This document shows, one piece after another, positions 12,334 to 50,240 of a DNA stretch of 64,000 bases (within the stretch, counting starts at the first letter, position 1; the number at the start of each line of letters is the position of its first letter). The stretch comes from Armatimonadota bacterium (GTDB lineage Bacteria > Armatimonadota > Fimbriimonadia > Fimbriimonadales > Fimbriimonadaceae), in contig DAIDHV010000003.1 in assembly GCA_027451905.1 (NCBI GenBank), positions 248,001 through 312,000 on the forward strand, in the 5' to 3' direction. The position numbers and the translations under genes were made by a program. The notes under the pieces are model-generated. The model was given only the letters and a program-made list of their open reading frames with translations, ran no database searches and was not told the DNA's origin.

Positions 12334-13389
12334 CTAGAAGTGCCCAGGATATAGTTTAGATTCGTCGTCGCTATATGGAAAGGTTAGCCAAGGTAAATGA
12401 AAGCGAGAGAAGACAATCGTCGGATGATTAGTGTCAAGAACACTCAGTGTCTTACTTAATGCCTTATAATGTTTAGATCGAGTTCCTTTATCAAGATTGA
12501 CCGTCGCTTGATAATCTAGATCAAGACACGTTTTGACGAGGCTTGACGCGGTGGGAATCAACTTCGCATTGATACTAATATCTCCGGATTCTGACTTACT
12601 GTAAACTTGCGCAAGCAGGTCATTCGTTGCAACCATGTAGGCCTGCTTAGCAAATTCAATTTGTTCGGGATTTTGGTTAAACATTTCTCGGACGGCACGT
12701 TGGTCTTGATCTTCAAAATGAGCGATTAAAAAGTCGCAGGTTTTCATGGCTCTTTTTCGAAAATCCGCAGAATTAAAAACTAGGTGGTAGCCGGATTTGT
12801 TCTCGGTCACATCTGCCCCGATAGCCTGTGCGATGGCGTGAACAAAAATGCATTCTCTTGCCGGTCGAACATCGATCAAGAGTGGAATTGATCCAAAAAA
12901 GGGTGAGAAGTGGAGGGGTTGCCTAAGTAGGTCACGGGCAAAAGTGACCAAACTCGTCGGCACCGGTGAGATTCCAAGAGTCCAAACCAATCCATCCTTT
13001 GCATAAAGTTGTCTTGTGTTTTTCAGAGAACTTGAGGCGGTCCTCGCCTTATTTATTTCAGTATTTTGCTGATTCTGAGGTGGGCTTAAAATGCCGACAG
13101 GCCAGCGAGCATTACTAAACGCAAAATATCCCTTGGTGGGATTTGTGAACCCCGCCAAGCGTGCCAAAGTGACACTTGCCGAACCTCTACTAAGTGAAAC
13201 TGAAAAGGAAGGTACTTTTTGCGACTCTCCAAGAGAGACTAAATTTGGAATAACCACAATTGGATCTCGTGTAATGCTCCGCACAAATTTAACAAAATTT
13301 GACAACGAACCACCGGAAAATTGAACAGGACTTGCCTTCGAGACTTGCGGGTGCAAAAGAGCAAGTAGAAAGAAGGATGATGCTAGCAT
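12334..13389 (-). CDS. Secreted protein, paralogue of the gene at 13412
   Basis: 351 residues with a signal peptide (SSFFLLALLHPQVSKA). The mature N-terminus has GGSLSNFVKFVRSITRDPIV, a beta-alpha layout like the short STN domain of secretins and TonB-dependent receptors (inference). It shares KGYFAFSNARW, KDGLVW, AIGADVTENKSGYHL, FRKRAMKTC and DTNHPTIVF with the neighbour upstream at matching spacing, so the two arose by tandem duplication. The function is unknown. It is the third gene of a minus-strand run starting at 15132; the gap to its neighbour is only 22 bases. Confidence 0.6.
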   Translation of the reverse strand: MLASSFFLLALLHPQVSKASPVQFSGGSLSNFVKFVRSITRDPIVVIPNLVSLGESQKVPSFSVSLSRGSASVTLARLAGFTNPTKGYFAFSNARWPVGILSPPQNQQNTEINKARTASSSLKNTRQLYAKDGLVWTLGISPVPTSLVTFARDLLRQPLHFSPFFGSIPLLIDVRPARECIFVHAIAQAIGADVTENKSGYHLVFNSADFRKRAMKTCDFLIAHFEDQDQRAVREMFNQNPEQIEFAKQAYMVATNDLLAQVYSKSESGDISINAKLIPTASSLVKTCLDLDYQATVNLDKGTRSKHYKALSKTLSVLDTNHPTIVFSRFHLPWLTFPYSDDESKLYPGHF

Positions 13390-13411: not shown

Positions 13412-14497
13412 CTAGTTAAATTCTCCGAAGACTTCCATTTGAGTTCCATGATCAATGAATCCCAGAAGTGGCAGGGCAAAGTTGTCAATCTGAATAATTG
13501 GGTGAGTCACATCCAGCTGAGACAAGGCATCTCGATACTGATTTGTTTGAGGCCCAATACGCCCTCCGTCGGACCGCAAACAGGCTCTTCCATAGCTATT
13601 TAGAAACTCTACGATTGTTTCGTTTGCTCCAGGAAAGTGCGAGGCATACTCAATGCTGTCATTCATACCTTTCGCATCAAAAATCTTCGTCACCTGGAGA
13701 TCGGGTAGGTTTTTGTAAACTTCGGCACCCAAATTCCAACTGAAGAGATGACTTATCTGAGTTTGCGCGTGTACTGAACTTGAAGCACTGAGGTGCTCGG
13801 ACATGTATACGCAAGTCGAAACCGCCCTTTTACGAAATACGCTTGGGTCGAGTTTAAGCTTGTATTCTGTCGGAGTCTCGGTGAATTGAGCGCCGATGGC
13901 CCGGGCAAGAATCTTAAGAAAAAGATAGTCACGTGTTTTCGGACAAGAAGCCACTACGTTCAGCATGAGTAGAAATGGCGAAATCGACAATTTTTTGGCA
14001 AATTTTAATTCGAGAAGCTGTACGGGCCGGAATGTTACCACGGGGCGCCCAGTTAGTCGCACAAAGCCATTTTTGACCATCAGTCTTTTTGGAGGCACAA
14101 AATTGGGTCGTTGTTTAGTTGGAAGGAGGAAGACCGAATTTGCTCTTTCCAAAGTTTTGCGCTTGCCGTGGTAAAAGAATGCAAAACCAGTATTTTGATC
14201 GAGAACTTCTGGGCTCCATCGACCAAATGAAAAAGCAAAGTAGTTTTTCCGATTTTGCCCAAGGCCAAGTTGATTACCCAATTCGACCCTGAGGTTAGCT
14301 CTGGTACTTGCGGAAAATTTAAATGCATTAACGGGTTCAGGATCACCGCCCGCCGTTCGTGAAGTTAAAAAAACAACCGGCTCTTTCGCAAAACGCGAAA
14401 CTGTGGCCACAAAATCTGAAACGCTACCTCCTGGGAATGTGATCTCAGGAGGGCGAGGACAAATTGTGAATACTGCGGCTACTAGGGCGGTGAACAT
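13412..14497 (-). CDS. Secreted protein, paralogue of the gene at 12334
   Basis: 361 residues beginning with a short hydrophobic signal segment (FTALVAAVFTI). The mature part shows GGSVSDFVATVSRFAKEPVVF (STN-like), KNYFAFSFGRW, VKNGFVR, ARAIGAQFTETPTEYKL, FRKRAVSTC and DVTHPIIQI, the same motifs in the same order as the next gene downstream. No enzyme signature is visible. It lies 50 bases behind the phase-variable-looking gene at 15132 and is probably on the same transcript. Confidence 0.6.
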   Translation of the reverse strand: MFTALVAAVFTICPRPPEITFPGGSVSDFVATVSRFAKEPVVFLTSRTAGGDPEPVNAFKFSASTRANLRVELGNQLGLGQNRKNYFAFSFGRWSPEVLDQNTGFAFFYHGKRKTLERANSVFLLPTKQRPNFVPPKRLMVKNGFVRLTGRPVVTFRPVQLLELKFAKKLSISPFLLMLNVVASCPKTRDYLFLKILARAIGAQFTETPTEYKLKLDPSVFRKRAVSTCVYMSEHLSASSSVHAQTQISHLFSWNLGAEVYKNLPDLQVTKIFDAKGMNDSIEYASHFPGANETIVEFLNSYGRACLRSDGGRIGPQTNQYRDALSQLDVTHPIIQIDNFALPLLGFIDHGTQMEVFGEFN

Positions 14498-14547: not shown

Positions 14548-15132
14548 CTATTTCCCGGTGGGAGGAGGAGGTGGTGGGGTCAACGTCGGTCTCACCTCCA
14601 CGTTAAGCGTGGCAGTTTGAGGCGGGTCAACTAAAGTTACAATCGACTGCCCTTGATCCAAAAATGTCCACGTGTCAACGTATACTTTCGTATACTTATT
14701 AACCAGGTTTGGGTCGGTGACTACAATGGAGTTAAGGTTGCTCAATATTGTTTGGGTTGCAGTCAGTGTCCCTGTTTGACCGTTGATGCCGGTCACGGAT
14801 GTTGGACCAACCGGTGTGCCAGAGTTTAGAGTAGTGAGTACTGCCATTTCCGTTGGGTCAACTAGTTGAACCAGGGTTTTCGGTGAAATATTCTCGGTAT
14901 AGGTGTCCATATCTGTGACCGATCCGACTTCAGAGAACTGAAACTGCCTGGTGCCAATGATCGTGTTGCCGACAACAGTTGTATTGGGCTCGGCAGGTCC
15001 GAATTTAAGCGTATGGCTCATCGGTGGATAGTTACTGTAAGGAGTGTAGCCGTTATATTGGCCAAAGGACAGCGAAGCAACTCCGCCGAGAGTCAATATT
15101 GCGAGTCCTCTAAGAATTAGGCTACATTTCAA
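14548..15132 (-). CDS. Secreted Pro-tailed protein, possibly phase-variable
   Basis: The 194-residue frame begins at TTG 15132 with a clear signal peptide (LILRGLAILTLGGVASLSFG). The rest has related beta-like units built around LVDPTEMAVLTT and LVDPPQTATLNV, and a tail of six Pro. No family recognised. TTG 15132 has no ribosome site. A good one, AAGGAG with GTG at 15184, lies upstream but is separated by an 8.8-copy pentanucleotide tract, and as sequenced GTG reads into TAG after 20 codons. Gain of one repeat unit or loss of two would join GTG to this frame. See the repeat entry. First gene of a three-gene secreted-protein run. Confidence 0.6.
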   Translation of the reverse strand: MKCSLILRGLAILTLGGVASLSFGQYNGYTPYSNYPPMSHTLKFGPAEPNTTVVGNTIIGTRQFQFSEVGSVTDMDTYTENISPKTLVQLVDPTEMAVLTTLNSGTPVGPTSVTGINGQTGTLTATQTILSNLNSIVVTDPNLVNKYTKVYVDTWTFLDQGQSIVTLVDPPQTATLNVEVRPTLTPPPPPPTGK

Positions 15133-15137
15133 ACAAG

Positions 15138-15181
15138 GATTTGATTTGATTTGATTTGATTTGATTTGATTTGATTTGATT
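15138..15181. repeat. Pentanucleotide tract (GATTT)8.8 at a translation start
   Basis: 44 bases of perfect GATTT repeats (AAATC on the coding minus strand). It lies between AAGGAG/GTG (GTG at 15184-15182) and the signal-peptide frame starting at 15132. The unit length of 5 means each slip changes the frame, as in bacterial contingency loci. Confidence 0.9.
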
Positions 15182-15200
15182 CACTTCAATCTCCTTGGTA

Positions 15201-15220
15201 ATTATACTGCATTTTGTGAA
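15201..15220 (-). promoter_or_regulatory. Promoter-like element of the 15132 gene
   Basis: On the minus strand TTCACAAAATG is followed by CAG and TATAATTA; the -10 TATAAT is 15206-15201. Transcription should start close to the AAGGAG box, giving a very short leader. The element is nearly identical to that at 7452. Confidence 0.5.
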
Positions 15221-50172: not shown

Positions 50173-50240
50173 CTTCGGCTGTCGCCTCCCATCGGCTATC
50201 GCAGCGCCTCGGCTGTCGCCGCGCCTCGGCTGACGCCGCA
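50173..50240. repeat. Four imperfect 17-bp GC-rich tandem units
   Basis: Units CTTCGGCTGTCGCCTCC, ATCGGCTATCGCAGCG, CCTCGGCTGTCGCCGCG and CCTCGGCTGACGCCGCA follow one another with a core YTCGGCTGTCGCC. Function unknown. Confidence 0.75.

What the first reader, a model, noticed from the sequence alone, without database searches (positions are those of the whole stretch)
14548..15220. Possible phase-variable secreted-protein operon: (GATTT)8.8 at the translation start
AAGGAG with GTG at 15184 is followed by a 44-bp pentanucleotide tract. As sequenced GTG reads through the tract and hits TAG after 20 codons, while the signal-peptide frame begins at a TTG with no ribosome site. One more repeat or two fewer would bring GTG into frame. 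This is the design of contingency genes such as Neisseria opa (CTCTT repeats). Two more secreted proteins follow closely and might be affected through coupling. Phase variation is not a well known feature of this kind of organism (inference).
Basis: partly seen in the sequence, partly recalled or inferred. Interest (0 to 1): 0.87.

Follow-up and report, generated by a model that had tools for sequence, protein, structure and literature searches.

The report
Repeat-tract on/off switch for secreted protein
A short DNA repeat at the start of a secreted-protein gene in an uncultured Armatimonadota bacterium is built like the slippage-prone on/off switches of Neisseria, and at least eight more such gene starts lie in the same genome, so this little-known environmental bacterium probably switches surface proteins on and off at random.

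Summary
A perfect (GATTT)8.8 tract (44 bp, 15138-15181) lies between AAGGAG-GTG (15184, minus strand) and the signal-peptide frame. As sequenced, GTG stops after 20 codons; one more repeat or two fewer would join the frames. The 194-aa protein has no relative in 101 related genomes, so strains cannot be compared. The decisive new evidence comes from the rest of the genome. In 1.66 Mb sampled (58%), 14 slippage-prone tracts were found. Ten sit at the 5' end of a long ORF, against 5% of random positions. Nine look like real switches: (TCCAC)10 in front of a PA14/Fn3 protein, a heptamer x9, (TGAGT)5.8, C10 in front of an RHS-repeat protein, G10, two G9 tracts inside the signal peptides of tandem paralogues, (CT)6.5, and this one. 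Eight are out of frame yet keep intact ORFs. Relatives' poly-G tracts show no such placement. The best explanation is an SSR 'phasome' working like Neisseria opa. No repeat-number variation was observed, because no reads or sister strains were available. Constitutive use of the downstream TTG remains the main rival, since most genes here lack a Shine-Dalgarno. Effects on the two downstream genes are untested.

The parts
15138..15181 (-). (GATTT)8.8 tract; (AATCA)n in the sense strand
   Evidence: unique in the genome and absent from 84 family genomes
15191..15196 (-). AAGGAG, Shine-Dalgarno-like, 6 nt before GTG
   Evidence: sequence directly
15182..15184 (-). GTG, presumed start codon of the switch
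15122..15184 (-). 20-codon ORF read from GTG in the sequenced (OFF) state, VNQIKSNQIKSNQIKSLFEM*
15181..15183 (-). TGA that closes the signal-peptide frame upstream, overlapping the GTG
15201..15206 (-). TATAAT, possible -10 box; no -35 partner was found by the scan
   Evidence: sequence; not listed as a full promoter
14548..15132 (-). Body ORF, 194 aa from TTG: signal peptide MKCSLILRGLAILTLGGVASLSFG|Q plus an orphan secreted domain and a Pro-rich tail
   Evidence: coding by codon usage; no relative; AF2 model without alignment uninformative, pLDDT 34
13412..14497 (-). Downstream gene, 361 aa, predicted secreted; ATG 50 nt after the body ORF's stop
   Evidence: weak relatives in 3 family genomes; no Pfam
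12334..13389 (-). Second downstream gene, 351 aa, 27%-identical paralogue of the previous one, 22 nt after it
   Evidence: no Pfam

Best explanation
The tract is a translational phase-variation switch (contingency locus) of a secreted protein, one of about nine in this genome. Ribosomes start at GTG 15184 and read through the AATCA repeats. When the repeat number puts GTG in frame with the body (+1 or -2 units from the sequenced state, then every third unit), a pre-protein with an NQIKS-repeat extension before the Sec signal peptide is made. In the other two registers translation stops within about 20 codons and little or no protein is made. Slipped-strand mispairing during replication changes the repeat number reversibly. 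The assembled sequence is an OFF register. Shown here: the anatomy, the frames, and the genome-wide placement of slippage-prone tracts at gene starts with intact ORFs behind them. Inferred: use of GTG, slippage, the ON/OFF phenotype, and loss of co-expression of the two downstream genes in the OFF state.
For: Anatomy. In 1.257 Mb of the genome, 14 SSRs with a unit not divisible by 3 were found. Ten lie at the 5' end of an ORF of 150 codons or more, against 5.0% of 20,000 random positions (binomial 8e-11). In stretches not chosen for a tract it is 5 of 6 without this locus (1.8e-6). A further 0.4 Mb added none. The other loci have the same design. L118 15237: signal peptide MGGSNVLLTMVASLCALMFVG, then (TCCAC)10.4, then a 578-codon PA14/Fn3 body. 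L120 2532: heptamer x9.3. L125 7153: C10 ahead of a 1230-codon RHS-repeat ORF (Pfam 9e-106). L129 5658: G10 directly after an ATG. L189 7577 and 10274: G9 inside the signal peptide MKNILI|GGG|IFALFLLPLSAFAQ of paralogues whose bodies are only 40% identical. L190 1558: (TGAGT)5.8. L205 6133: (CT)6.5 inside a lipoprotein signal peptide. In L118, L125, both L189 genes and L190 no start codon lies between the tract and the body, so expression with a signal peptide must depend on the tract register. Eight of nine are out of frame, yet bodies of 157 to 1230 codons are intact, as expected only if ON states recur. Eight of nine meet the repeat-number limits used for Neisseria phasomes (PMC5953494).
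Against: No repeat-number variation was seen: there is a single assembly, no reads and no strain of the same species or genus. At this locus TTG 15132 (MKCS...) gives a textbook signal peptide on its own, and most genes of this genome lack a Shine-Dalgarno, so a constitutive TTG start is possible. The protein is an orphan, so selection on it cannot be measured. By a crude automatic signal-peptide test only 5 of 9 loci pass, against 30% of long ORFs, so 'all secreted' rests partly on inspection; this locus itself fails that test.
Confidence: 0.72

Rival explanations
1. The gene starts constitutively at TTG 15132. The GTG mini-ORF and tract are a 5' leader whose length only tunes expression, for example by coupling: the sequenced GTG ORF stops just past TTG, and the third register would end in TGA overlapping TTG (TTTGA).
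For: TTG-AAA... begins a complete signal peptide; 10 of 79 unambiguous starts in this genome are TTG and 62 of 79 have no Shine-Dalgarno; stop and start overlap in the two non-fused registers.
Against: AAGGAG-6 nt-GTG is a far better start than TTG. At five sibling loci no start exists after the tract, so the shared design is frame switching. A pure leader would not need a unit that breaks frame.
Confidence: 0.2
2. The tract is a neutral repeat expansion in a dying or non-functional orphan gene.
For: Orphan protein; codon usage weaker than typical long ORFs (0.074 against a 5th percentile of 0.098).
Against: The frame is intact for 195 codons with codon bias only in that frame; there are several independent tracts of different units at gene starts and few elsewhere.
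Confidence: 0.06
3. Assembly or sequencing artefact.
For: Draft assembly of 37 contigs; homopolymers are error-prone in long-read data.
Against: Perfect 44-65 bp tracts of 5- and 7-mers fit inside reads and are not a usual error type (general knowledge); errors would not concentrate at gene starts.
Confidence: 0.02

Closest known systems
Neisseria opa genes (CTCTT pentamers in the leader-peptide sequence)
   Same: Pentanucleotide tract just after the start codon of a signal-peptide gene; repeat number sets the frame (PMC3745409). The sibling G9 tracts in L189 lie inside the signal peptide, as in opa.
   Different: No homology to Opa by Pfam; here the tract lies before the signal peptide, the unit is GATTT, and the host is an uncultured Armatimonadota. 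Switching has not been observed.
SSR phasomes of Neisseria, Haemophilus and Campylobacter
   Same: Several loci per genome with mono-, penta- and heptanucleotide tracts in 5' coding regions of surface proteins, within the repeat limits used by PhasomeIt (PMC5953494).
   Different: Fewer loci (about 9 in 58% of the genome); target genes are orphans, RHS and PA14/Fn3 proteins; no host or pathogenic lifestyle is known.
Promoter-spacer or UTR repeat switches (e.g. meningococcal nadA distal-spacing type, PMC2791445, abstract only)
   Same: L190 9327 has G11 shortly before the ATG of a signal-peptide gene.
   Different: Not the mechanism of the window locus; only a lead.

Membership tests
SSR-mediated translational phase-variable (contingency) gene | Perfect SSR, unit not a multiple of 3, above accepted repeat number | tested here: met
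   8.8 units of a 5-mer; limit of 5 used for Neisseria
SSR-mediated translational phase-variable (contingency) gene | Tract between a start codon and an intact body so that unit changes alter frame | tested here: met
SSR-mediated translational phase-variable (contingency) gene | Body retained intact while out of frame | tested here: met
   195 open codons with in-frame codon bias; eight such loci in the sampled genome
SSR-mediated translational phase-variable (contingency) gene | Reversible repeat-number variation within a population | not testable with these tools
   no reads, clones or sister strains held
SSR-mediated translational phase-variable (contingency) gene | Expression follows repeat number | not testable with these tools
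   needs reporter or proteomics
Genome with a phasome (several contingency loci) | SSRs over-represented at 5' ends of genes | tested here: met
   10/14 against 5% of random positions; relatives' poly-G 2/29
Opa-like outer-membrane adhesin | Homology to the Opa beta-barrel family | tested here: not met
   no Pfam match to Opa or any barrel family for the window protein

The most novel reading that the evidence does not exclude
An uncultured environmental Armatimonadota bacterium carries a genome-wide phasome: at least nine genes, mostly for secreted or surface proteins, each under a frame-switching repeat, with six different units (G/C, CT, three pentamers, a heptamer). This would be the first described in its phylum, and it appears private to its genus within the family.
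Probability: 0.6. Interest if true: 0.75.

Novelty: new member of a known kind. Interest (0 to 1): 0.63.

Why it matters
SSR contingency genes are known mostly from host-adapted pathogens and commensals, where immune evasion is the usual explanation. A phasome in a Fimbriimonadaceae bacterium from an environmental assembly would point to other selective forces, such as phage receptors, predation or biofilm structure. It also gives nine concrete loci whose repeat numbers can be read directly from existing metagenome reads.

Tried and rejected
Relatives of the 194-aa protein: none in 101 related genomes, GTDB contigs or viral contigs. Single-sequence AF2: pLDDT 34, not used. Phase variation as a family-wide trait: not supported at this sampling; poly-G runs are common in the family, but only 2 of 29 sampled first tracts lie at gene starts, and the long ones in the G-rich genomes examined mostly lie inside ORFs or at contig ends. 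The relatives' 7- and 8-mers (L155, L020) do not meet the gene-start test. L188 G9 meets the positional test but the ORF is an acyl-CoA dehydrogenase whose domain begins further in, so the tract is probably in a leader; not counted. RNA folding of the start region: z = 0.37, no signal. Orthologues of the G9 paralogues with other tract lengths: only fragments in the own genome and one weak hit.

Full report
WHAT IS THERE. The minus strand at 15200-15120 reads TACCAAGGAGATTGAA-GTG-(AATCA)8.8-CCTTGTTTGAAATGTAG. Tandem Repeats Finder gives GATTT x8.8, 100% match, at 15138-15181. GTG translates to VNQIKSNQIKSNQIKSLFEM*. The long frame is MKCSLILRGLAILTLGGVASLSFGQ... (TTG 15132, 194 aa). It is closed upstream by a TGA overlapping the GTG and has no ordinary start codon inside the tract. 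GTG and TTG are 52 nt apart, so +1 or -2 units fuse them.

IS IT CHANCE? The tract is the only GATTT tract of three or more units in the 2.87-Mb genome, and (GATTT)4 occurs in none of 84 other genomes of the family. The body is coding by codon usage: +0.074 per codon, against -0.105 and -0.094 in the shifted frames.

WHO AND WHAT. The best named UppS relatives are Armatimonadota / Fimbriimonadaceae MAGs (60-70% identity). The 194-aa protein is an orphan and its fold could not be modelled. It is followed after 50 nt by a 361-aa gene and, 22 nt after that, by its 27%-identical 351-aa paralogue; none has a significant Pfam match. A three-gene operon is plausible but untested.

THE DECISIVE EVIDENCE. 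I sampled 1.66 Mb (58%) of the genome as stretches and scanned for simple repeats. Fourteen tracts had units not divisible by three and passed length limits. Ten lie within 75 nt after a start codon and at the 5' end of an ORF of 150 codons or more, against 5.0% of 20,000 random positions; binomial P = 8e-11, or 1.8e-6 using only the stretches not chosen for a tract and leaving out this locus. One of the ten, G9 before an acyl-CoA dehydrogenase (L188), is probably a leader tract and I discount it. The nine others are: this locus; L118 (TCCAC)10.4; L120 heptamer x9.3; L125 C10 with an RHS-repeat protein; L129 G10; L189 G9 twice; L190 (TGAGT)5.8; L205 (CT)6.5. In both L189 genes the G9 interrupts the signal peptide itself (MKNILI-GGG-IFALFLLPLSAFAQ). 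The DNA around the switch is nearly identical in the two, while the bodies are 40% identical. Eight of the nine are out of frame as assembled, needing one or two units to be in frame; L205 is in frame. That eight out-of-frame genes keep bodies of 157 to 1230 codons is hard to explain unless in-frame states recur.

HOW IT PROBABLY WORKS. Replication slippage changes the repeat number, and one register of three joins GTG to the signal-peptide frame. This is the opa logic, where CTCTT repeats in the leader-peptide sequence set the frame (PMC3745409). Steps shown: anatomy, registers, genome-wide placement. Steps inferred: initiation at GTG, slippage, expression states, effect on the two downstream genes.

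WHAT SPEAKS AGAINST. First, no variation has been seen. Second, TTG 15132 could start translation in every register; only 17 of 79 unambiguous starts in this genome have even a weak Shine-Dalgarno (12 strong) and 10 of 79 are TTG. At five sibling loci (L118, L125, both L189, L190) no such bypass exists, which favours frame switching as the common design. L120 and L129, like this locus, do have a possible start in the body frame. Third, a crude signal-peptide test passes only 5 of the 9 against a generous 30% background, so 'all secreted' rests partly on inspection.

IS IT LINEAGE-WIDE? Apparently not. Poly-G runs of 9 or more occur in 78 of 85 family genomes, but the sampled ones are not at gene starts (2 of 29), and the few longer SSRs in 0.48 Mb of relatives do not meet the gene-start test. 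This genome is the only member of its genus in the set, so the age of the system cannot be judged.

NOVELTY. The mechanism is a known kind. Its host is new as far as the held literature shows: no paper mentions phase variation together with Armatimonadetes, and none of the top papers combines Fimbriimonas or Armatimonadota with contingency loci. The library lacks most subscription journals.

Noticed in passing
L189 7577-7585 and 10274-10282 (G000:C2:417577, 420274): Two tandem paralogues (40% identity) each carry G9 in the middle of an otherwise nearly identical signal-peptide coding region; short C-terminal fragments of the family lie in C12 and C5.
   Followed up: partly
L190 9327-9337 (G000:C5:9327): G11 lies about 12 nt before the ATG of a 137-aa signal-peptide protein, downstream of a TTGACA; possibly a promoter- or leader-type switch.
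   Followed up: partly
L192 8864-8874 (G000:C6:8864): C11 directly after a signal-peptide-like start MKATLLLTLAFCNAVLLPLQIASLSS; the frame behind it does not look coding.
   Followed up: no
L191 10560-10569 (G000:C5:191560): G10 just after a TTGACA, no obvious gene start, about 1.8 kb from a fragment of the L189 family.
   Followed up: no
L118 19615-19626: (CT)6 near the N-terminus of an apparent cytosine-5 DNA methyltransferase (by inspection); short, but a phase-variable methyltransferase would be worth checking.
   Followed up: no
window 15134-15139 and 15192-15197: CAAGGA (with the Shine-Dalgarno) and TCCTTG flank the tract as a perfect 6-bp inverted repeat; folding energy is not unusual (z 0.37).
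   Followed up: partly
window 50175-50239: Imperfect 17-bp tandem repeat (3.8 copies) in a stretch without an ORF of 100 codons or more.
   Followed up: no
own genome, sampled ORFs: Only 17 of 79 unambiguous starts have a Shine-Dalgarno-like motif, so most genes seem to start without one.
   Followed up: partly
genomes G048, G027, G002, G124 of the same family: Unusually many overlapping poly-G matches of 9 or more; the few examined are mostly not at gene starts.
   Followed up: partly
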